64,000 bases of DNA from Ruminococcus sp. YE71 (lineage in GTDB: Bacteria > Bacillota > Clostridia > Oscillospirales > Ruminococcaceae). This document shows, piece by piece, positions 5,947-41,651 of the stretch. Every line of letters begins with the position of its first letter. Position 1 is the first letter of the stretch. The notes under the pieces were generated by a model. It did not search any database and had not been told where the DNA came from. It saw nothing but the letters and a program-made list of their open reading frames with translations. The position numbers and the translations under genes were made by a program. Location of the stretch: NCBI RefSeq assembly GCF_900119155.1, contig NZ_FPIR01000008.1, positions 62,001-126,000 of the forward strand, read 5' to 3'.

Positions 5947-6091
5947 AACAAAATAGTCGGTGCTGACTGCTAAACCAAACACCGACTACATACACAAAAC
6001 ACAAGGGGATTCCTCCGCCTGAGTTCCCCTTGATTATAACACGAAATTTTGATTATGTCAAGAGAGGAAATAAAGGGAGGTGATTATTTTG
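5947..6091 (+). repeat. Left copy of the duplicated element leader
   Basis: The non-coding leader matches 9323-9468 almost perfectly; from about 6000 to the start codon it is essentially identical. It has two stem-loops: TAGTCGGTG/CACCGACTA (5954-5962, 5980-5988) and AAGGGGA/TCCCCTT (6003-6009, 6025-6031). The second loop contains CCTCC, which is complementary to the GGGAGG ribosome-binding site at the leader end. It could be a translational control element, a replication origin, or both. Confidence 0.75.
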
Positions 6092-6331
6092 CTTAACCGT
6101 CCTCGGCTCGATTGTGACTTCTTCGAGCATAGAATGAAGATTCGGCGTTTCAAGTTTCGGCGTGTTCCTCGTCGAGATCGTCTCGGAACTTTCGTGCTTT
6201 ATCACTCCCGAGGCGTTATGATGGGCAGTTATGACAATATGCTTGTCTACAAACGTAAGCTCGGCGGTTACATACGTCCCTATACTGGTGCTCAGACTGT
6301 CAAGTCTATGTCTGACTGGGGAATAGCTTAA
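6089..6331 (+). CDS. Small basic element protein (module A)
   Basis: An 80-residue, very Arg/Lys-rich protein of unknown function. I place the start at the TTG six bases after GGGAGGTG; the in-frame GTG upstream is part of the ribosome-binding site. From about residue 7 it resembles the C-terminal half of the protein at 8465-8848. Shared features are a Cys-Asp-(Tyr/Phe)-Phe start, an Arg-Phe-Lys-Phe-(Arg/Lys)-(Arg/Lys)-Val core, a Gly-Thr beta strand and a Lys-Leu-Gly-Gly end. The gene sits between the leader and module B and is absent from the right-hand copy. Nucleic-acid binding is possible from its charge but is only a guess. Confidence 0.6.
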   Translation: MLNRPRLDCDFFEHRMKIRRFKFRRVPRRDRLGTFVLYHSRGVMMGSYDNMLVYKRKLGGYIRPYTGAQTVKSMSDWGIA

Positions 6332-6357
6332 ATCGGAAATAAAGGGAGGTGATTATT

Positions 6358-6558
6358 TTGCTTAATTGTCAATATTTTGTACCTGATTGCAATCACTGCA
6401 ATTTTTCTGATTGTAAATATCGCAACAAACAAACGGATGATATTACTGCTTGTTATTGTTATCCTAATTGCCCTGACTGTTGCAATGCTTGTAGTGATGA
6501 TGAGGGTGTTTCTTTCTATTGCTCTGTTAAAGATATTGATCTTGATTTTTTTAATTAA
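6358..6558 (+). CDS. Cys-rich small element protein (module B, left copy)
   Basis: About 66 residues with 13 cysteines. They include a Cys-x-x-Cys-x-x-Ser-Asp-Cys-x-Tyr motif that also occurs near the N-terminus of the protein at 8465-8848, which suggests a zinc-binding or disulfide-bonded knuckle. The start is the TTG six bases after GGGAGGTG. A second open frame here would encode a very hydrophobic peptide. Comparison with the copy at 9466-9684 favours the Cys-rich frame: most differences are C/T changes at its third codon positions and every cysteine in the shared part is kept. The function is unknown. Confidence 0.6.
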   Translation: MLNCQYFVPDCNHCNFSDCKYRNKQTDDITACYCYPNCPDCCNACSDDEGVSFYCSVKDIDLDFFN

Positions 6559-6733
6559 GATTGGATATTATTGACAATCCATTGCACTAAATAAAAGTTA
6601 AGACCGCCGAACTGGTAGATTATTACCATTGAAGAAAGTCTCCCTTGCTGCACCTCGGCAGCATGAAAAGGTCACATGAACCGACACGCAGCAGCAAGCA
6701 CTTTTTTTCCTTTTTGGGCTTAGTTGCCACACA

Positions 6734-6881
6734 TCGAGAAAACAAACTCCTGTCAAGGGGAGTGTCTGAAAATAGTTTGTGAAATTTTGCACTCGTACTC
6801 CGTCGCGCTTTGCTCGAAATACTCCTGCAAAAATTCACAAAGTATTTTTAGATGCCCCTTGATAGGAGTTTGTTTTTTCGA
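6734..6881. repeat. 148-base imperfect inverted repeat (long hairpin)
   Basis: The outer 27-base arms, 6734-6760 and 6855-6881, are inverted copies with two differences. The inner arms (about 6761-6791 and 6826-6854) also pair, with small bulges, leaving a 34-base loop. On single-stranded DNA this would fold into one long hairpin. In a rolling-circle element it could be a lagging-strand origin; a MITE insertion is the other simple reading. The rest of 6559-6733 shows no gene I can support. Confidence 0.8.
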
Positions 6882-6908
6882 TATAATGCCATAGCCCAAA
6901 AGGGAAAA

Positions 6909-7304
6909 TCATTCCTCGCTCTGGCTGTCGGTCTGAGTGCTGCCGAGCTTCTTTTCGATGGATTCAAGCCGTTCGGTGATAGGCTCTAACTTATTGTCCA
7001 TCCAATCTTCAATAATCTCTTTCATGCTTGGCTGATTAGAAGAACCGTTCCTCATTTCCTCTCTGTTTCTGATTGTTTCAAGCCCTTCGCCAATTTTATC
7101 GAAGTCTGGCTCTTCACGTCCTGCGAGATAGTCCAAAGAAATATCGCAGTAGTCGGCTATGCTCTTGGCTACCTCAAGGCTCATGTTCGTTTCCCCTCGC
7201 TCATAGCGAGAATATAAACTCGGATTCATTCCGAGCTCTTCGGCAAAGTCTTTCTGAGTTAAGCCCTTTGATACTCTGATATTATAAAGATTGTTCTTGT
7301 ACAT
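6909..7304 (-). CDS. XRE-family HTH transcriptional repressor
   Basis: A 131-residue Cro/CI-type regulator. Residues about 6-62 form the helix-turn-helix domain, with a LTQKDFAEELG helix followed by an SLYSRYERGE recognition segment. The C-terminal half is acidic and predicted helical, probably for oligomerisation. It is transcribed divergently from the rep gene. A 10-base sequence recurs over its start codon, within its own promoter spacer and within the rep promoter spacer, so it probably represses both promoters and sets copy number or dormancy. Its ribosome-binding site GGAGG lies nine bases before ATG. Confidence 0.88.
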   Translation of the reverse strand: MYKNNLYNIRVSKGLTQKDFAEELGMNPSLYSRYERGETNMSLEVAKSIADYCDISLDYLAGREEPDFDKIGEGLETIRNREEMRNGSSNQPSMKEIIEDWMDNKLEPITERLESIEKKLGSTQTDSQSEE

Positions 7305-7407
7305 ATTAGTATACCTCCGTTTAGAATACTATAACACATATTAGTTCATTTGTCTACCTATTTTCAATATTTTGTCCTTTTAGGTATTGACATTTGTACT
7401 TGTTAGT
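7301..7407. promoter_or_regulatory. Three putative XRE operator half-sites
   Basis: ACATATTAGT occurs at 7301-7310 and 7336-7345, and the close variant ACTTGTTAGT at 7398-7407. They overlap the repressor start codon, the repressor promoter spacer and the rep promoter spacer respectively. This arrangement suits autoregulation plus repression of rep. The operator function is inferred. Confidence 0.5.
7328..7356 (-). promoter_or_regulatory. Promoter of the XRE repressor gene
   Basis: On the minus strand TAGACA (7351-7356) and TATAGT (7328-7333) are separated by 17 bases. The central operator-like repeat lies inside the spacer. Confidence 0.6.
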
Positions 7408-7415
7408 GCTATAAT
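7387..7415 (+). promoter_or_regulatory. Promoter of the rep gene
   Basis: A perfect TTGACA (7387-7392), a 17-base spacer and a perfect TATAAT (7410-7415) precede the rep start by about 55 bases. So strong a promoter on a replication gene implies tight repression, probably by the divergent XRE protein. Confidence 0.8.
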
Positions 7416-7469
7416 TGCATATAGGTACATCGTTGTGCCAATAAGTAATTAAAGGAGGAATGTTCAGAT

Positions 7470-8291
7470 ATGAAACATAACACCAAAATCAAGACCTATC
7501 CCGACGGTCACGAAAAAGTAACTATCTGCTCGGTCAAGCTGTTCAACGATGAGAGCAGGGGAGCCGATGAAATGCCCTGTGAGACTGTCTGCAAGCCCAA
7601 GAACATGGATTCCTGCTCACGCTATGACAGCGTTATTCGTGCCAAAAGCAAAGTATTTGACATTGTTGCTATGAACGGATTCACACACTTTGTCACACTC
7701 ACTATTGACCCGAAATATCACAGAGATAATTCAAAGATAGTTCGAGGGATTCTGCGCTGTTTCTGTTCTAACCATGTTCAGCGTGACAACATGACTTATC
7801 TTTTGATACCTGAATATCACAAGGACGGTAAAGCGATTCATTTTCATGGTTTTCTGAAAGGCGATATTGAATACATTTACAGCGGAACGGTCATTATTCC
7901 TGAACGCTCTAAGCCTGTCAAGCTCGATACTGCGAGACGTTACGGAGTACCAGCAGATAAGCAACAGACCGTCTATAATATACCTGCATGGATATACGGT
8001 TATTCTACAGCGGTTCGTCTTGTCGGTGATACTCAGAACGTTGCTAAGTATGTCACGAAGTATGTTACTAAGGATTGCACTAAGATTTTCGGCAACTTCT
8101 ATTTTGCAGGCGGTCGGGAGCTTGTCCGAGACGTTCCGACGACCTTTGCCGACGTTGCTACTCCGCATCTTGTAAAGACTGAGAAACAGTCTTACTGCGA
8201 GCCTTTGAGATGCTCGTTCAAGTATCTTGACAGTTCTGACCCTGACAACTACGCCGAGTTAAAAACGCTTGGCTTGTTGTCGTGCGATTGA
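7470..8291 (+). CDS. Rolling-circle replication initiator (HUH endonuclease)
   Basis: A 273-residue Rep protein. It has the three motifs expected of HUH nickases of the ORF2/G2P or microvirus-VP4 kind: FVTLTIDP (motif 1, about residues 71-78), IHFHGFL with the metal-binding His-x-His (motif 2, about 129-135), and VAKYVTKYVTKD carrying the candidate nicking tyrosines (motif 3). It would nick one strand at a double-strand origin and stay covalently attached to the 5' end during rolling-circle replication. The ribosome-binding site AAAGGAGG and ATG are well placed. There is no helicase domain. Plasmid and filamentous-phage initiators are equally compatible with the motifs. Confidence 0.85.
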   Translation: MKHNTKIKTYPDGHEKVTICSVKLFNDESRGADEMPCETVCKPKNMDSCSRYDSVIRAKSKVFDIVAMNGFTHFVTLTIDPKYHRDNSKIVRGILRCFCSNHVQRDNMTYLLIPEYHKDGKAIHFHGFLKGDIEYIYSGTVIIPERSKPVKLDTARRYGVPADKQQTVYNIPAWIYGYSTAVRLVGDTQNVAKYVTKYVTKDCTKIFGNFYFAGGRELVRDVPTTFADVATPHLVKTEKQSYCEPLRCSFKYLDSSDPDNYAELKTLGLLSCD

Positions 8292-8489
8292 TGCGCGGTG
8301 GCGCGGATTTTCCGCGCCCGCGCTCAACGCCGAAACAGCCTGCATTTATCGGGGTTTGCAGGCACTTGGGGCTACTTGATTATATGCACAAATTTACATC
8401 ACGCAGGCTTACAGCCCACGCCGTTGAAGCGACAGGGCAGTATTTAGCCCGTATTGATTGAAATTTGAAAATTTCCAAACGTTTGGAAA
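8292..8489. other. Candidate replication-origin or regulatory region after rep
   Basis: Directly after the rep stop is a perfect GC-rich hairpin, GGCGCGGA/TCCGCGCC with a TTT loop (8300-8318). It is followed by GCCTGCA/TGCAGGC (8338-8344, 8357-8363) and then a perfect 18-base palindrome, TTTCCAAACGTTTGGAAA (8472-8489). The first hairpin has no T run, so it is a poor terminator. Hairpins next to rep are where double-strand origins often lie; the palindrome could be an operator for the downstream genes. The function is inferred. Confidence 0.45.
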
Positions 8490-8848
8490 GTGAGGTGGTA
8501 CGCACGAAAGAACGTCCTATGCTGTACGGTGAATGTTATTACTGCATCTGCACAGCCTGTTCACAGTCTGACTGTCCGTACAGTCACAGCCTATACAAGC
8601 ATTGTCAGCACTGCCACGACCGTAAACGCAAAATGCCTCGCCTCAGATGCGACTACTTCAAGCACTACATGAAAACACATCGCTTTAAGTTCAAGCGCGT
8701 CACAGAGCCGTTACCGAGCCATTACGGCACGTACATATTACTGACCGACAAACAAGTATACATCGGTGAGTATGACAAGTTGTTGAAGCTGTCCAAACGT
8801 CTCGGCGGTGTGCTTCGCCGTCTTAACATTGTTGATGACACATTTTGA
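8465..8848 (+). CDS. Cys-rich plus basic two-module element protein (module C)
   Basis: Up to 127 residues. The N-terminal part carries a Cys-rich cluster including Cys-x-x-Cys-x-x-Ser-Asp-Cys-x-Tyr, as in the proteins at 6358 and 9466. The C-terminal part (from Arg-Leu-Arg-Cys-Asp-Tyr-Phe onward) resembles the basic protein at 6089, with Arg-Phe-Lys-Phe-Lys-Arg-Val and Arg-Leu-Gly-Gly. It therefore reads as a fusion of modules encoded separately at the left end. The start is uncertain: TTG at 8465 would put an 18-base palindrome inside the gene. A GTGAGGTG ribosome-binding-like site at 8490-8497 suggests a start near 8504, where only a non-standard ACG occurs; ATG at 8519 is the next option. 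The function is unknown. Confidence 0.55.
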   Translation: MKISKRLESEVVRTKERPMLYGECYYCICTACSQSDCPYSHSLYKHCQHCHDRKRKMPRLRCDYFKHYMKTHRFKFKRVTEPLPSHYGTYILLTDKQVYIGEYDKLLKLSKRLGGVLRRLNIVDDTF

Positions 8849-8862
8849 AAGGATTTGATTAC

Positions 8863-9066
8863 ATGGAACAGAAATATTACAGGTCAACTCTTCACGCTCT
8901 GACTATCGCTCTTGAACCTTGGGAGAATTCAAGCGTTCCCGATGATGTTCATGAGAAGATTCTTGAACTGGCTGATCTTTGCTTTAAGCATATCGGCAAC
9001 GGTTTCACATACAAGGTCATATCTGATTGTGAGGGTAATATAGATTTGGAAGAGGTGGACTTATGA
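8863..9066 (+). CDS. Small acidic element protein, unknown function
   Basis: A 67-residue acidic protein with no motif I recognise; its first half looks helical. The start is ATG nine bases after GAAAGGA. Its stop overlaps the start of the next gene (TTATGA), so the two are translationally coupled. It lies downstream of rep and module C in the same orientation. Confidence 0.5.
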   Translation: MEQKYYRSTLHALTIALEPWENSSVPDDVHEKILELADLCFKHIGNGFTYKVISDCEGNIDLEEVDL

Positions 9067-9314
9067 GCATTATAGAAACGTTCATGTTATGCGATACGTA
9101 TGTGGTCAACTTCCTGTGGCTCACGGCTTTCGGTAACGAACATATCATTTCGGTATCGGTCAATGCTCGGGATGAAGTATCTGCTGTCATGCTTGCCACA
9201 AAGTACCTCATGAGCCATTACAGTTTAGCCGTATGCGATAACGTCCGTCTGGTCGATTCCGTGATAAGGTTCGATAATTCTGAGGATACTTGCGCAAGCT
9301 CAAAGGGAGATTGA
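9063..9314 (+). CDS. Small element protein, unknown function
   Basis: An 83-residue protein with no recognised family. It is of mixed alpha/beta character with a Ser-Val-Ala-rich middle and no membrane segment or signal peptide. It overlaps the preceding stop codon by four bases. It is the last gene before the right copy of the leader. Confidence 0.5.
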   Translation: MSIIETFMLCDTYVVNFLWLTAFGNEHIISVSVNARDEVSAVMLATKYLMSHYSLAVCDNVRLVDSVIRFDNSEDTCASSKGD

Positions 9315-9322
9315 CTTTTAAA

Positions 9323-9468
9323 AACAAAATAGTCGGTGCTGACCGCTAAATCAATCACCGACTACATACGAACTAACACAAGGGGATTCCTCCGCCTGAG
9401 TTCCCCTTGATTATAACACGAAATTTTGATTATGTCAAGAGAGGAAATAAAGGGAGGTGATTTTTTTG
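9323..9468 (+). repeat. Right copy of the duplicated element leader
   Basis: It matches 5947-6091, with both stem-loops preserved: TAGTCGGTG/CACCGACTA (9330-9338, 9356-9364) and AAGGGGA/TCCCCTT (9380-9386, 9402-9408). The stems are intact although the first loop has diverged. It leads directly into module B, without module A in between. Confidence 0.75.
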
Positions 9469-9684
9469 CTTAATTGTCAATATTTTGTACCTGACTGCAA
9501 TCACTGCAATTTTTCTGATTGTAAATATCGCAATAAACAAACGGATGATATTACTTCTTGTTATTGTTATCCTAATTGTCCTGACTGTTGCAATGCTTGT
9601 AGTGATGATGAGGGTGTTTCTTTTTATTGTTCTGTTAAATGTATTGACCTTAATTTTCCTTACGACCTTGATTTTCTTCTTTGA
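9466..9684 (+). CDS. Cys-rich small element protein (module B, right copy)
   Basis: About 72 residues, nearly identical to the 6358-6558 product over the first 55 residues and then divergent, with an extra hydrophobic tail. TTG start six bases after GGGAGGTG. All shared cysteines are kept and one Asp has become Cys. Synonymous C/T differences from the left copy support this reading frame over the overlapping hydrophobic one. The function is unknown; it may bind metal. Confidence 0.6.
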   Translation: MLNCQYFVPDCNHCNFSDCKYRNKQTDDITSCYCYPNCPDCCNACSDDEGVSFYCSVKCIDLNFPYDLDFLL

Positions 9685-9812
9685 GTGTTGCTTTTTAAGA
9701 TTGGATATAATTGACAGCCGATTGCACTAAATAAAAGTTTAGCGCAATAGAGAGAAGTAAACAAACCAATAACCACCTCAAATCACATTCCAAAAAAACA
9801 CACAACAAATTC

Positions 9813-9880: not shown

Positions 9881-12800
9881 ATGAAAGATACGATCTACCA
9901 ACTTACTTCGGCACAGAAAAACATCTCAGAGCTTCAGGCGTTTTACAGTGACAGCAGCATTTCTACTTTGTGCGGCGCGATTATTTTCGACCAAAAGCTA
10001 AACGCAGAACCACTCAATGAGGCGCTCAGGATACTTGTCAGACGGCACGAATCTCTGCGTCTGAGATTTCGCAGCGAGAACGGCATAACGGTGCAATACG
10101 TTTCGGACGAGTCCGCCGAGATAGGCTTCGAGAAATTTCACTCAGTCGAAGAAATGCGCAGTTTCTGTAGTACACAGGCGGCTGTGCGCTTCGGAACGGA
10201 CGGCGGGATAATGTACCGCCTCACGATCCTTGACCTGCCGGATAAGACCGGGATAATGCTGTGTTGTTCCCATCTTATTGCGGACGCATGGAGCTACAGC
10301 GTGCTTGCACACGACGCCTGGTCGATCTATTCAAGTCTCCTGAATAAAGAGACAGTTGACGATACTGTCCTCAGATATACCGACAGCATCCCGAGATATG
10401 AGGCGTATTTGCAGTCGGATAAGCACATCAAAGATATGAACTTCTGGGCTGATAAGTACAGCTCGGACATCGGTGAAACAGCCGTCAGGAATTGCACTAA
10501 ATTTTCCGATAAAGTCTCAGCAAAACGTTTTGTTACTACGCTTTCGCCGCATATTTACTCGCGTGCTGACTTTTTTTGCAGACAAAACCACATATCTCTC
10601 GCGGCACTTTTCGAGTGCGCCATGACACTTTATATCGCACGGATAAACGCTGCAAAAACCATCACGATCGGCGTTCCCGTACTCGGCCGAAAATCCGTTT
10701 CCGAGAAAAACACCGCAGGAATGTTCGTCTCGACCATCCCGCTCACTGTCACTATTAATGACAGTGATAGCACTATCGGGCTTTGCCGTAAAGTCTTTGC
10801 CGCTCACAAAGAGATATACCGTCACAGAGATCTGCCGTTTGCCGAGATCAAATATGCGGCAAGCGTTTCGGGGCGTTTTTTCAACGTTTTAGTGAGTTTT
10901 CAGAACTCACGCACCAATGTGCCTGCAAAGACAGAATGGTTCTCCAACGGGTATTGCGAACTTCCTCTCGCGGTCCATATTGATGACAGAGACAGCAGAA
11001 ACGACTGCACGCTCACCTTCGATTATCAAACCGAGGTTTTTCGGGACAGCAGAGAGATACACCTGCTTGCAGAGCGGATAAAGCACATCATTACACAGAT
11101 CATCAGCAGAGAAAAAACGGTCTCGGCGATATCGGTCATACCTCATAATGAGTTTGAACTTCTGACTAAGACCTTCAACGATACGTCAGTCGGATATGAA
11201 AAAAACAAGTGCGTCCATCAGGCTTTCAAAGAGATCGCCGCCGTTCGTCCAAATGATACCGCACTGATCTTTCATAAGCAAAAGTTCACATACAGCCGCA
11301 TCGACAAAATGTCGGATTCTCTCGCCGCGTATCTTGCCGTGAAAGGTGCTGCCAAGGGTTCACACATCCCTATCATCGCCCGCAGAAGCCCGTATGTAAT
11401 AATCGCCATGCTCGCCGTGATGAAAACGGGCGCGGCTTATATGCCGATCTCGCCCGACTACCCTGCCGACAGGATCACTCAGATGCTCGGAGCCGCCAAC
11501 GTAAAGACCGTGCTGACCTGCGGCTGTGAGTATGCGGGTTCGGTGGCGCTTGAGACCTTCGACTATTCGGAAAACACAGCAGTGAATCTGCCCGAGATCC
11601 GTCCCGAGGACAGCTGTTATGTCATTTTCACGTCGGGCTCCACTGGCAGACCGAAAGCGATATCCGTCACCCATCGGAACGTCATGAACTACTGTGCGCA
11701 GAACAGGTTCAACGTGTGCGGCGGCATCATCAACGGCGAAAAGCGCATACTTTCGGTGACGGATATTGTGTTCGACATTTTCGTGACCGAGAGCATTCTC
11801 GCGCTGCTTAGGGGCATCACCATCGTTCTTGCCGACGAAGAGCAGACGGTCTCACAGCACGCGCTGAGCCGTCTTGTCACCGAGACAGGTGCGGATATTT
11901 TGCAGACCACACCGACGAAAATGCGAGGATTTATGCTCGATAAGACTGATCTTTCATATCTGCGCTCCTTCCGCAAGATAATTCTTGGCGGCGAAAAGCT
12001 CCCTCCTGCGCTTGTCGGCGAGCTGAAAAACCATACTGATGCCGAGATCTTCAACATCTACGGTCCTGCCGAAACGACCGTGTGGTCAGCGCTGACCGCG
12101 GCGGATGAGCGCGATATCACCATCGGCAGACCCATCGCCAACACCCGCATCTACATCCTTGACGCCGATCGTCAGCTTCAGCCTGTCGGGATCACAGGCG
12201 AGATATGTATCGCGGGGGACGGTGTCAGCCGAGGCTACCTCAACGACCCGGGGCTGACAGCTGAGAAGTTCGTTCACGACCCGTTTCACGGCGGTGTGAT
12301 GTATCGGACAGGTGACATGGGGCTGATGCGCGACGACGGCTGTATCGAGTTCTGCGGCAGGCGCGACGATCAGATCAAGCTGCGCGGACTCAGGATAGAG
12401 CTTGGCGACATCGAAAGCGCGATATGCGGTTTTGAAGGTGTGATGCTTGCAGCGGTAGTCTGCCGAAACGAGCGGCTGATCGGCTTCTACACGTCGGAAA
12501 AACCGCTCGACGAAAGCAGACTGCGCCGTTTTCTGCAAAGGAAACTCCCCTCCCACATGGTGCCGAACCGCTTCAATCGGCTCGAAAAGATGCCGATGAC
12601 GCAGAGCGGAAAGATCGACCGAAGATCGCTCCCGAATGCTGATGCGGCTGTCAGTGTGCGCAAAAAAATCTCGTCCCCGAAAAACGAGACCGAACGCAGA
12701 CTTTGCGGTATAATGGCGCAGATCCTAAAACTGCCGCAGGTCTCTCCCGAAGATGATTTCTTCGAGCTGGGCGGCGACAGTTTCTCGGCTATGGAGTTCG

Positions 12801-13585
12801 CATCAGCTGCCGCAGCCGAAGGCATAGACCTCACTGTGCGGAGCGTTTACGAGCTGCGAACGGTCAGACAGCTGTGCGGTCCGCTCGGCGGCGGTCAGAG
12901 TCTTTCCGACACCGAAAAAATGCTTGAGGAAAAATACCGAGGCTATCCTCAGCGCCGAACAGTCGGCGACCTGATGTTCTTCGACACATTCACGGCTATG
13001 ACGAAAGCGCTCTACCGCTTTCAGGTCGAAGGGCTCGGGAACCTTGACACGAAGGAAAAATACATAATCTGCCCGAACCACGAAAGCGACCTCGACTGTA
13101 TGTGGGTATGGGCGGCGCTCAGCAGGAAGTTCCATCTCTGCGAGACCTGCGCACTTATCGCCGAGGAACACCTTGATGACAGGCTGAAAAGGTTCATTTT
13201 TCGGGTCTCGGGCGGAATACCTATCGACCGCAGAGGGGATTTCGCCCCCGCAGTCCGCCGCGCCGAAAAAGTCCTGATGCAGCAAAAGCGCCTTCTGCTG
13301 ATCCATCCCGAGGGCACACGGACGCGCACGGGCAGGCTCGGCGAGCTCAAAAACGGCGCCGCGCTCATCGCGAAAAAGACGGGGGTAAAGATCGTTCCCG
13401 TCAGGATATGCGGTGCTCGGCAGATCTATCCCGTCAGCCGCAGGTACCCGATGCTGTTCGACAAGTCGGAGATGGGGCGGTTCACGCTGCGTATCTTTTT
13501 TGGCAAGCCCATCGAACCGAAGGGTATGACCGTCACCGAGATCACCGAAAAGATCAGGCGGTATCTCGCATTCAAAAGCCGCTGA
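9881..13585 (+). CDS. NRPS-like C-A-T protein fused to PlsC-type acyltransferase
   Basis: A 1234-residue multidomain enzyme. Residues about 1-430 form a condensation domain whose HHxxxDG motif reads SHLIADA, keeping the second His and the Asp. Residues about 440-920 are an adenylation domain with FTSGSTGRPK, YGPAETT, YRTGD and a GRRDDQIKLRG core. A carrier domain follows with LGGDS (phosphopantetheine Ser near 967). The C-terminal part (about 1035-1225) is a 1-acyl-glycerol-3-phosphate acyltransferase fold with NHESDLD (H-x4-D) and EGTRTR. By hand alignment to GrsA the specificity residues read about D-I-T-Q-I-G-I-V-W-K; I assign no substrate. Probable role: activate an amino acid and transfer it or a lipid to make an aminoacyl or peptidyl lipid. 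No phosphopantetheinyl transferase, transporter or thioesterase lies next to it. Confidence 0.85.
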   Translation: MKDTIYQLTSAQKNISELQAFYSDSSISTLCGAIIFDQKLNAEPLNEALRILVRRHESLRLRFRSENGITVQYVSDESAEIGFEKFHSVEEMRSFCSTQAAVRFGTDGGIMYRLTILDLPDKTGIMLCCSHLIADAWSYSVLAHDAWSIYSSLLNKETVDDTVLRYTDSIPRYEAYLQSDKHIKDMNFWADKYSSDIGETAVRNCTKFSDKVSAKRFVTTLSPHIYSRADFFCRQNHISLAALFECAMTLYIARINAAKTITIGVPVLGRKSVSEKNTAGMFVSTIPLTVTINDSDSTIGLCRKVFAAHKEIYRHRDLPFAEIKYAASVSGRFFNVLVSFQNSRTNVPAKTEWFSNGYCELPLAVHIDDRDSRNDCTLTFDYQTEVFRDSREIHLLAERIKHIITQIISREKTVSAISVIPHNEFELLTKTFNDTSVGYEKNKCVHQAFKEIAAVRPNDTALIFHKQKFTYSRIDKMSDSLAAYLAVKGAAKGSHIPIIARRSPYVIIAMLAVMKTGAAYMPISPDYPADRITQMLGAANVKTVLTCGCEYAGSVALETFDYSENTAVNLPEIRPEDSCYVIFTSGSTGRPKAISVTHRNVMNYCAQNRFNVCGGIINGEKRILSVTDIVFDIFVTESILALLRGITIVLADEEQTVSQHALSRLVTETGADILQTTPTKMRGFMLDKTDLSYLRSFRKIILGGEKLPPALVGELKNHTDAEIFNIYGPAETTVWSALTAADERDITIGRPIANTRIYILDADRQLQPVGITGEICIAGDGVSRGYLNDPGLTAEKFVHDPFHGGVMYRTGDMGLMRDDGCIEFCGRRDDQIKLRGLRIELGDIESAICGFEGVMLAAVVCRNERLIGFYTSEKPLDESRLRRFLQRKLPSHMVPNRFNRLEKMPMTQSGKIDRRSLPNADAAVSVRKKISSPKNETERRLCGIMAQILKLPQVSPEDDFFELGGDSFSAMEFASAAAAEGIDLTVRSVYELRTVRQLCGPLGGGQSLSDTEKMLEEKYRGYPQRRTVGDLMFFDTFTAMTKALYRFQVEGLGNLDTKEKYIICPNHESDLDCMWVWAALSRKFHLCETCALIAEEHLDDRLKRFIFRVSGGIPIDRRGDFAPAVRRAEKVLMQQKRLLLIHPEGTRTRTGRLGELKNGAALIAKKTGVKIVPVRICGARQIYPVSRRYPMLFDKSEMGRFTLRIFFGKPIEPKGMTVTEITEKIRRYLAFKSR

Positions 13586-39768: not shown

Positions 39769-39797
39769 ATTATAAACTAATAGGGCTGATTTGTCAA
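39769..39797 (-). promoter_or_regulatory. Promoter of the yceD-rpmF operon
   Basis: On the minus strand a perfect TTGACA (39792-39797), 17-base spacer and perfect TATAAT (39769-39774), about 65 bases before the gene. Confidence 0.85.
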
Positions 39798-39851
39798 GCC
39801 CTTTTTGGTGATTTTTTCGGAAATTTTGCAATTTCTTTAAAAACCGCCTGA

Positions 39852-40256
39852 TCAGTGGATGAAAGCCTTTACCTTATCGGGCAGCTCTTCGGTGTCAGCC
39901 GATACGGTGAATACGAGCTTAACGTCCTTAGCGAGTACAGAAACCTTCTCAAGCATAGCGCCGAGAGCATCGTAATCTCTGCCGCCGATGCGGAGGATGC
40001 CGTCAACATAGATCTGCTGGATATCGTAGTTGCCTGCGAGCAGACCTGCAACAAAACCATAGAAAGCGTCATAGCTGGTGATACCGAACTCCTCAGCATC
40101 AACGAGTCTTACCTTGGAGGGGATATCGTAGGTCAGCTTCATGCCTCTCTCGATGCATACTACGTAACCGGTAGCCTCTTCGGAAGCCTTAACTATAGCG
40201 TCAACAAGGATCTTGGTCTTGCCTGTGCCCTTTTTTCCGGGAATCAAATTGATCAT
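39852..40256 (-). CDS. Small P-loop nucleotide-binding protein
   Basis: A 134-residue protein. A Walker A motif, GKKGTGKTK, lies at residues 7-15 and a possible Walker B, QIYVDGIL, near 80. It is about half the length of most P-loop NTPases and has no recognised partner domain. It follows pgi by 63 bases in the same direction, so it is probably cotranscribed. I cannot assign a family; an ATP-dependent regulatory role is only a guess. Confidence 0.75.
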   Translation of the reverse strand: MINLIPGKKGTGKTKILVDAIVKASEEATGYVVCIERGMKLTYDIPSKVRLVDAEEFGITSYDAFYGFVAGLLAGNYDIQQIYVDGILRIGGRDYDALGAMLEKVSVLAKDVKLVFTVSADTEELPDKVKAFIH

Positions 40257-40319
40257 AATTGAAACTCCTATCTGTCATATAGACATATATTTTCAGAGCG
40301 CGAACGCTCTTAAAGCCTT

Positions 40320-41651
40320 TTACTTTAACTTTGCCTCAAGCTCAGCCTTCATGGACTCATATCCGGGCTTGCCGAGCAGAGCGAACATATTCTTCTTGTA
40401 GCTCTCAACGCCGGGCTGATCGAACGGATTTACGCCGAGCATATAGCCGGAGATAGCGCAAGCCTTCTCGAAGAAGTAGATGAGCCATCCGATGGTCTCC
40501 TCGTCAACAGCGTCAAGCTCGAGAACGAGGTTGGGAACGCCGCCCTCGGTATGTGCGAGGATAGTGCCCTGATAAGCCTTCTCATTAACGACGCTCATGT
40601 TCTGGTTGGTCAGGAAGTTCAGACCGTCGAGGTTCTCAGCGTCGGGCTGGAGGAACAGGTCGCTTCTCTGAGACTTGATGTTGAGAACAGTCTCGAACAT
40701 GATGCGGCTGCCGTCCTGGATGAACTGACCCAGCGAGTGGAGGTCGGTGGAGAATACTGCGGATGCAGGGAAAATACCCTTCTGATCCTTGCCCTCGCTC
40801 TCGCCGTACAGCTGCTTGAACCACTCGTTCATCATAGCGAACGAAGGATCGTAGCTGATGAGCATCTCAACGCTCTTGCCCTTATTATAAAGAATGTTGC
40901 GGAGAGCTGCATACTTGTAGCAGTCATTATCGTCGTTCTTAGCGTATGCTGCTCTTGCGTTTGCAGCGCCTGCCATCAGCTTGTCGATGTCGATGCCTGC
41001 AACAGCGATCGGCAGCAGACCAACAGCGGTGAGTACGGATAAACGTCCGCCAACGTCATCCGGAACTACGAATGTCTCATAGCCCTCAGTATCGGACAGG
41101 GACTTCAAAGTGCCCTTAGCCTTGTCAGTGGTAGCGAAGATGCGGTTCTTAGCTTCTTCCTTGCCGTACTTATCCTCAACGAGCTTCTTGAAGATACGGA
41201 ACGCAAGTGCAGGCTCGGTAGTGGTACCGGACTTGGAGATAACGTTCACGCAAATATCCTTACCCTCACAGATGGAGAGGATATCGTTGAGATAAGCAGG
41301 GTTGATGCTGTTTCCGACATAGTAGATGTCGGGGGTATCTTTTTTCAGATTATTGTACATCGACGAGCGGAGAGCCTCGATAACAGCTCTTGCGCCGAGA
41401 TACGAGCCGCCGATACCGATAACGATGAAAACATCGCAGGACTTCTTGATGCGCTCTGCGGCAGCATTTATGCGTGCGAACTCCTCTTTGTCATAGTTTA
41501 CGGGGAGATCGACCCAGCCGAGAAAATCAGAGCCTGCACCGCTTCTCGATTCGAGAAGGTCATGTGCAGCAGTAACAAGAGGCTTGATGCGGTCAAGCTC
41601 ATAGTCAGCGATAAACGGCTTTAAGTATTCCGAATTAAGTTTAACAGCCAT
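40320..41651 (-). CDS. pgi: Glucose-6-phosphate isomerase
   Basis: A 443-residue glycolytic isomerase. [20 protein letters not shown] and the sugar-phosphate loop [15 protein letters not shown] are intact, and the length matches the Gram-positive form. It has its own consensus promoter. Confidence 0.96.

What the first reader, a model, noticed from the sequence alone, without database searches (positions are those of the whole stretch)
5947..9739. Integrase-less rolling-circle element flanked by its own leader and a Cys-rich gene
An HUH initiator, divergent XRE repressor and a set of tiny proteins lie between two copies of the same leader plus Cys-rich gene, in an intergenic gap between a terminator and a promoter. 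No integrase, transposase, coat or Zot gene is visible. This looks like an integrated single-stranded-DNA replicon of about 3.1-3.4 kb that relies on a host recombinase or homologous recombination, and it does not fit an ordinary plasmid or filamentous phage.
Basis: partly seen in the sequence, partly recalled or inferred. Interest (0 to 1): 0.75.

Follow-up and report, generated by a model that had tools for sequence, protein, structure and literature searches.

The report
Satellite-like phage element at chromosome dif
A 3.1-kb element with a filamentous-phage-type replication gene but no recognisable coat or integrase genes sits at a bacterium's chromosome-dimer-resolution site, which suggests that it borrows the host's Xer enzyme to integrate and another phage's coat to travel.

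Summary
Two copies of a module (small-RNA promoter plus Cys-rich gene; aligned blocks 90-97% identical) flank an intact HUH Rep (PF23343), a divergent XRE gene and small ORFs; no integrase or Zot was found. New here: the right-hand repeat ends inside ATTGCACTAAA-TAAAAG-TTTAGCGCAAT (9721-9748). This is the only such site in the host genome; the motif occurs in 218 of 396 family genomes (reversed control: 1 row) and has an xer-like gene in the flank of 26 of 34 loci examined. Its left arm and centre recur at 6581-6597, followed by a divergent arm. I read a 3,140-bp unit (6599-9738) inserted at dif by host Xer, with a full dif rebuilt on its right; 5947-6598 would be the right end of an older, related element. 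Rep relatives include gut inoviruses; 10 of 40 loci around Rep hits hold a dif-like site. G089 carries three tandem copies of an integrase-less 2,906-bp element at its dif. Closest known systems: TLCphi and RS1. Helper packaging is inferred: the host has no Zot gene, but 3 of 13 genomes of the genus do. Xer dependence, excision and transfer were not testable here.

The parts
9721..9748 (.). intact dif-like site, ATTGCACTAAA TAAAAG TTTAGCGCAAT (11-6-11, arms 10/11 complementary): right boundary of the element, regenerated dif
   Evidence: 0 mismatches to the family pattern; only site in the window; own genome has one match
6581..6608 (.). hybrid att site: same left arm and centre as 9721-9737, right arm divergent (TTAAGACCGCC, 5/11 to the pattern): left boundary of the element
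6599..9738 (+). element unit, 3,140 bp, GC 0.428 against 0.514 for the rest of the window
   Evidence: boundaries inferred from the two att sites
5947..6598 (+). right-end remnant of an older, related element (small-RNA gene, orfA83, cysA, att half-site)
   Evidence: interpretation inferred
7470..8291 (+). HUH replication initiator (FVTLT, HFHG and YVTKY motifs present)
   Evidence: PF23343; phrog_3419; alignments; model; 123 matches at E<=0.001 among viral protein models
6909..7304 (-). XRE/HTH_3 regulator, divergent from rep
7387..7415 (+). perfect sigma-70 promoter (TTGACA-17-TATAAT, extended -10) in front of rep
6693..6920 (.). long imperfect hairpin between the att site and the XRE gene; candidate origin / packaging signal or bidirectional terminator
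   Evidence: I1, I2; 6555-6930 folded as ssDNA, z -9.5; function inferred
8465..8848 (+). orf127: Cys-rich N-terminus plus a domain shared with orfA83; relatives in Zot-bearing loci of the same genus and next to dif elsewhere
8845..9066 (+). orf73, no family
9063..9314 (+). orf83b, no family above a cut-off
9323..9438 (-). small-RNA gene, copy B: perfect promoter 9438-9410, predicted transcript of roughly 80-90 nt ending in a terminator-like hairpin
   Evidence: transcript not observed
5947..6061 (-). small-RNA gene, copy A: perfect promoter 6061-6033
   Evidence: transcript not observed
9457..9684 (+). cysB, Cys-rich protein (frame from GTG 9457; TTG at 9466 is the likelier start)
6349..6558 (+). 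cysA, Cys-rich protein in the remnant (92% identical to cysB)
6080..6331 (+). orfA83, homologous to the C-terminal part of orf127 (46% over 61 aa)

Best explanation
A satellite-like inoviral element that integrates at the host's chromosome-dimer-resolution site by means of the host Xer recombinase. Rep (HUH) nicks the element and drives rolling-circle replication, with the divergent XRE protein as the likely repressor. The circular form carries a single attP made of one good Xer arm plus the dif centre and a divergent second arm (TLCphi-type). Xer recombines it with dif, giving [left arm-centre-divergent arm] at 6581-6608, the element, and a regenerated full dif at 9721-9748. Because a full dif is rebuilt on the right, another element can insert there, which explains the tandem remnant on the left (5947-6598). 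Lacking recognisable coat and Zot genes, it would spread only when an inovirus in the same cell supplies the virion. Shown here: the gene content, the repeats, the dif-like site and its uniqueness in the host, the hybrid site, and the relatedness of Rep to inoviral Reps, some of them at dif. Inferred: that the site works as dif, Xer catalysis, rolling-circle replication, repression, helper packaging.
For: dif-like motif at the exact end of the repeat; motif in 218 of 396 family genomes, reversed control in one row, one match in the host; a XerC/D-like gene within the fetched flank in 26 of 34 dif loci. A dif-like site lies in 10 of 40 loci fetched around Rep-family hits. Rep relatives in 'phages': 24 records, all bajarodino or Dulem viruses; the two opened are Inoviridae with an annotated Zot. 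Viral contigs with Rep relatives (33 loci), several with a Walker-A protein that looks like Zot (motif only). Tandem precedent in G089: three copies of 2,906 bp (2894-2905 of 2906 identical) at dif beside xer, with no Zot- or integrase-like ORF seen in the unit. Same-genus Zot-bearing loci carrying orf127 relatives: G012 (48%) and G004 (50%), where dif, the Zot gene (25.3 bits, cut-off 20.3), the small-RNA gene and an orfA83 relative lie together. Rep absent from the 12 other same-genus genomes.
Against: No Zot in the host genome, so no resident helper. No circular form seen. The closest Reps in genomes (43-47%) stand beside their own integrase, not beside Zot. The motif is absent (<=2 mismatches) from 178 of 396 family genomes, including 5 of the 8 rows of this genus. 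In this genus dif is not beside xer (G010, G006; own xer is 31 kb away). GC skew around the site is weak: 0.0003 left, -0.0405 right. The hybrid site's total score (16 of 22) is reached by 15 of 200 random host stretches, so it rests on identity with 9721, not on its score. The left edge of the remnant (5947) shows no att half-site.
Confidence: 0.72

Rival explanations
1. A defective inovirus prophage: a full inovirus integrated at dif by Xer and later lost Zot, coat and other genes; it no longer moves.
For: Zot-bearing relatives sit at dif in the family (L060 and L189); no helper in the host; the left copy is truncated.
Against: Rep, XRE and orf127 frames are open and promoters are perfect; the two Cys-gene copies differ by 6 synonymous and 2 non-synonymous codons of 61; the ORFs scanned show no structural-gene family; a similarly structural-gene-free element exists as three near-identical tandem copies in G089.
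Confidence: 0.2
2. A rolling-circle plasmid-like replicon integrated by homologous recombination between its Cys module and a resident copy.
For: 420-650 bp direct repeats flank the unit; the closest Reps travel with an integrase rather than Zot; weak matches to small staphylococcal plasmids.
Against: The right repeat ends inside the only dif-like site of the genome; no DNA match in 72,556 plasmid records at E<=0.01; none of the 24 plasmid Rep matches covers 80% of Rep, and the 20 listed are 25.9-32.7% identical.
Confidence: 0.08
3. The small-RNA-gene-plus-small-ORF-plus-dif module is itself a Xer-mobile cassette (like the dif modules of Acinetobacter plasmids, known to me from recall and a listed abstract) and the Rep element merely lies between two of them.
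For: Module present twice here and, as small-RNA gene plus orfA83-like ORF left of dif, in G004 with a different neighbour, polA.
Against: No dif half-site at the module's left edge; no relative of the small Cys genes was found in the G004 locus.
Confidence: 0.1

Closest known systems
TLCphi (satellite of filamentous phages, Vibrio cholerae)
   Same: Replication module without morphogenesis or virion genes, integrated at dif through host Xer; attP with one good arm plus centre and a divergent second arm (passages of PMC4246890 and PMC5357621).
   Different: Another host group, whose dif arms are near-symmetric and whose dif often lies beside one xer-like gene; the 3.8 kb has no DNA relative in the phage collection beyond one 34-base match to a microvirus; protein-level comparison with TLCphi was not made.
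RS1 (satellite of CTXphi)
   Same: About 3 kb, repressor gene divergent from rep, small ORFs, tandem insertion at dif (RS1 layout recalled). The G089 relative also ends in two inverted dif-like sites, as described for CTXphi attP.
   Different: The element in the window has a single att site, not the paired one; no RS1 gene was compared directly.
Gut inoviruses (bajarodino / Dulem viruses; Enterocloster inoviruses, PMC10061712, passages seen)
   Same: Rep related to bajarodino/Dulem Reps; orf127-type genes in Zot-bearing loci of G012 and G004.
   Different: They carry Zot and other virion genes; the window element has none recognised. Enterocloster sequences were not compared.
Rep-plus-integrase mini-elements (G117, G172, G207, G306)
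   Same: Closest Rep sequences in the genomes searched (43-47% identity).
   Different: They encode a tyrosine integrase next to rep (PF00589 in L054, L055, L057, L058).

Membership tests
IMEX (integrative mobile elements exploiting Xer) | No recombinase of its own | tested here: met
IMEX (integrative mobile elements exploiting Xer) | Inserted at the chromosomal dif | tested here: met
   that the site acts as dif in this host is inferred from uniqueness and from the linkage to xer elsewhere in the family
IMEX (integrative mobile elements exploiting Xer) | Flanked by Xer-type sites, attP a mimic of dif | tested here: met
   9721-9748 full, 6581-6608 one arm plus centre
IMEX (integrative mobile elements exploiting Xer) | Integration/excision depends on host Xer | not testable with these tools
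   needs an xer mutant or an in vitro reaction
Inovirus satellite (TLCphi / RS1 kind) | Inoviral-type replication gene | tested here: met
   the family also occurs in microviruses and integrase-bearing elements
Inovirus satellite (TLCphi / RS1 kind) | No structural or secretion genes | tested here: met
   very divergent coat proteins cannot be excluded by profiles
Inovirus satellite (TLCphi / RS1 kind) | Helper inovirus available | tested here: inconclusive
   0 of 1 in the own genome; 3 of 13 genomes of the genus, the own one included in the 13, have a Zot match over the cut-off
Inovirus satellite (TLCphi / RS1 kind) | Packaged and transmitted by the helper | not testable with these tools
   needs virion DNA
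Inoviridae | Zot/pI-like morphogenesis ATPase | tested here: not met
   and ORF scans
CTXphi-type attP | Two inverted dif-like sites near each other | tested here: not met
   for the window element (such a pair is present in G089)

The most novel reading that the evidence does not exclude
A family of integrase-less inovirus satellites in gut Clostridia-type bacteria that hijack a near-symmetric, often xer-linked dif system in two ways (single-site, TLC-like, in the window; paired-site, CTX-like, in G089), and whose small-RNA-plus-Cys-rich module, shared in part with inovirus loci of the same genus, controls the helper or excludes competitors.
Probability: 0.25. Interest if true: 0.72.

Novelty: new variant of a known kind. 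Interest (0 to 1): 0.55.

Why it matters
The dif-hijacking filamentous phages and satellites that I found described come from Gram-negative bacteria such as Vibrio (listings and passages). Here the same logic appears in what look like gut Clostridia, where 218 of 396 family genomes carry a recognisable dif and 10 of 40 loci with Rep-related genes lie on it. That gives a way to find small inoviruses and satellites that lack an integrase, and makes testable whether one near-symmetric Xer/dif system can serve single-site and paired-site elements alike.

Tried and rejected
Tried without result: a Firmicutes-type dif consensus typed from recall gave 3 forward and 1 reverse matches in the own genome against 2 and 2 for the control and was dropped. 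DNA search of the 3.8 kb gave one 34-base hit in phages and none in plasmids. Viral-contig scans with Rep alone and with orf127 gave no relative; cysB gave one 19-residue match, not followed. A 21-base hairpin pattern gave 0. Rfam: none at gathering threshold; one sub-threshold microRNA-precursor match on the long hairpin was judged spurious. PDB fold search gave no match at E<=0.001, although some low-scoring hits are HUH nucleases. Flank synteny for an empty site: G008 has a 47% homolog of the NRPS but different upstream genes; the G010 dif locus shares one gene with the window, there 20 kb from dif. Rejected: the hydrophobic ORFs overlapping the Cys genes in another frame (copy differences fit the Cys frame); a paired attP in the window element; 5947 as an att site.
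Full report
WHAT IS THERE. Copy A has an extra ORF between leader and Cys gene. Between them lie an XRE gene on the minus strand, a Rep with a Pfam match above the cut-off (PF23343, 41.1 against 27.8 bits), and three small ORFs without a family above any cut-off. Rep has the FVTLT, HFHG and YVTKY motifs, with invariant residues there in eight- and eleven-sequence alignments. An AlphaFold model (mean pLDDT 78.8) has 123 matches at E<=0.001 in a library of viral protein models, among them named ORF2/G2P and microvirus initiators; PDB gave none at that level.

THE SITE. The right repeat runs to 9738. Around it stands ATTGCACTAAA-TAAAAG-TTTAGCGCAAT, 9721-9748: two 11-base arms, 10 of 11 complementary, and a 6-base centre. 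I found it because a DNA search with the repeat hit only its last bases in some other genomes, and these places held perfectly symmetric versions of the palindrome in G010, G334 and G088 and a 10/11 one in G006. The pattern ATTKCRCTAAA-N6-TTTAGYGMAAT with up to 2 mismatches is in 218 of 396 family genomes; by my reading of the rows about 28 of these have two or three matches and the rest one; the reversed control rings in one row (G137). The own genome has exactly one match, which is the window site. Of 34 such loci looked at (30 listed first and 4, not a random draw), 26 have a XerC/D-like gene in the fetched flank of up to 1.5 kb. These are the properties expected of dif. Against it: 178 of 396 genomes lack the motif, including G001, G002, G005, G007 and G012 of the same genus, and in G000, G010 and G006 it is not beside xer. 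The own Xer-like gene (contig C24, about 39825-40820) resembles the XerC and XerD models but stays below their curated cut-offs, as does the G089 one; the two are 49% identical. GC skew is about zero left of the site and -0.04 right of it, compatible with a terminus but weak.

HOW THE ELEMENT SITS IN IT. The left arm and centre recur at 6581-6597 followed by a divergent arm (TTAAGACCGCC). That is what a Xer crossover between dif and a one-armed attP leaves: a hybrid site on the left, the element, and a full dif on the right. The slight asymmetry of the window's dif (A in one arm against G in the other) fits one arm coming from the element; this is inference. The unit is then 3,140 bp, GC 0.428 against 0.514 for the rest of the window. 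The segment 5947-6598 ends in the same arm and centre, so it is read as the right end of an older element into whose rebuilt dif the present one inserted. Its left edge carries no att half-site, so it would be truncated. In the review passages I saw, TLCphi is a satellite with a replication module but no virion genes (PMC4246890) and its attP resembles dif in the XerC arm and the centre but not in the XerD arm (PMC5357621). That is the closest match.

RELATIVES. Rep is single in the host, absent from the 12 other same-genus genomes searched and present in 35 of 396 family genomes, the own one included. I fetched 40 loci around such hits (20, 20), not every hit; one (L208) has no Rep hit at the local threshold; 10 of the 40 contain a dif-like site. 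Some are Zot-bearing (above cut-off in L060 and L189). The closest Reps (43-47%) instead stand beside a tyrosine integrase in the four loci tested (L054, L055, L057, L058). In G089 (L066) three tandem copies of a 2,906-bp element with Rep, XRE and small ORFs, and no Zot- or integrase-like ORF in the unit, lie at a perfect dif beside xer; copies are 2894, 2895 and 2905 of 2906 identical. Each unit ends in two inverted dif-like sites (L066 8878-8906 and 8978-9008, spacers 7 and 9), 88% complementary over 17 nt. Folded as one strand the stretch is very stable (z -9.1), but the predicted fold closes each site on itself rather than on the other. Two inverted dif-like sites are the arrangement described for CTXphi attP. 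The window element does not have such a pair.

LINK TO HELPERS. The host has no Zot gene at E<=1 (that profile rings in 13 of 14 control genomes at this level, over the cut-off in 6, so it is permissive), while 3 of 13 genomes of the genus have a match over the cut-off (scores just over it). In G012 the Zot-bearing locus carries a relative of orf127 (48%). In G004 (L234) dif lies between a Zot gene (25.3 bits) whose neighbouring orf127 relative (50%) abuts dif from the right, and, on the left, the small-RNA gene plus an orfA83/orf127 relative next to polA. Orf127-type Cys-rich genes also stand within about 120 bp of dif in G195, G366, G167 and G160. In the whole search 46 of 386 genomes pass E<=0.1, most of them weakly and probably by chance; 13 rows have E<=0.005, 11 of them outside the own genome, in 9 genomes. 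A satellite that shares genes with inovirus loci of its genus is the simplest reading; transfer itself is not shown.

THE 'LEADER'. In both copies the minus strand has TTGACA-17-TATAAT with extended -10; with that spacer the 64-kb window holds four such perfect promoters: these two, the rep promoter, and one at 39797. G004 keeps the same promoter. The predicted transcript folds into two hairpins, the second followed by a T-run; across the three sequences 4 of 27 predicted pairs change on both sides and 5 are broken in one sequence. Folding z-scores are -4.2 and -2.5 for the two window copies (4 of 200 shuffles fold as well as copy A). The exact start is unknown and may cut the first hairpin short. 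It is a good candidate small RNA gene. The stretch GGCGGAGG is unchanged in all three; its target is unknown. The Cys-gene copies differ at 8 of 61 codons, 6 of them synonymous, so the proteins look maintained.

LITERATURE. The papers listed by the searches (capped lists, titles and abstract beginnings) include none on a dif-integrated filamentous-phage satellite in Clostridia-type bacteria. Of the Enterocloster inovirus paper (PMC10061712) I saw passages; it reports direct repeats as attachment sites, and the word Xer does not occur in the held text. Of the survey of cryptic inoviruses (PMC6813254) I saw the abstract and passages; 'satellite' and 'Xer' have 0 occurrences in the held text. Of PMC3025954 (dif prediction) I saw passages. 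Subscription papers and preprints were not covered.

VERDICT. Observation confirmed; mechanism sharpened to host-Xer insertion at dif; kind: a new variant of the known IMEX/inovirus-satellite theme. Membership in Inoviridae is not met (no Zot); 'works like TLCphi' stands at moderate-to-good confidence, 'is a live satellite' at moderate confidence.

Noticed in passing
L159-L188, L141, L144, L145, L153: The family's dif-like site has near-perfectly symmetric arms and has a XerC/D-like gene in the flank in 26 of 34 loci, reminiscent of the linked single-recombinase systems XerS/difSL and XerH/difH (described in PMC5357621, passages).
   Followed up: partly
L196, L197, L198, L199, L065: Rep-family elements carrying a short recombinase (177-208 aa) that matches only the catalytic Phage_integrase domain. 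L196, L198 and L199 also hold a dif-like site, and in G116 (L065) two 2,544-bp copies are in tandem.
   Followed up: partly
L234 5708-6657: In G004 the small-RNA gene and an orfA83-like ORF stand left of dif next to polA, and a Zot-bearing locus abuts the same dif from the other side in opposite orientation.
   Followed up: partly
L066 8878-9008: Two inverted dif-like sites at the end of each tandem unit in G089: an arrangement like CTXphi attP, in what looks like a Clostridia-type bacterium.
   Followed up: partly
window 5947: The left edge of the older copy coincides with the end of the small-RNA terminator and shows no att half-site; unexplained.
   Followed up: partly
window 6693-6920: Very strong long hairpin (ssDNA z -9.5) that also gives a sub-threshold, probably spurious, microRNA-precursor match in Rfam.
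   Followed up: partly
window 9881-13585: Right neighbour is a 1,234-aa NRPS-like protein with Condensation, AMP-binding, PP-binding and a terminal Acyltransferase domain (Pfam).
   Followed up: partly
own genome: 36 PF00589 (tyrosine recombinase) matches in a 4.07-Mb genome, some with internal stops: many other mobile elements.
   Followed up: no
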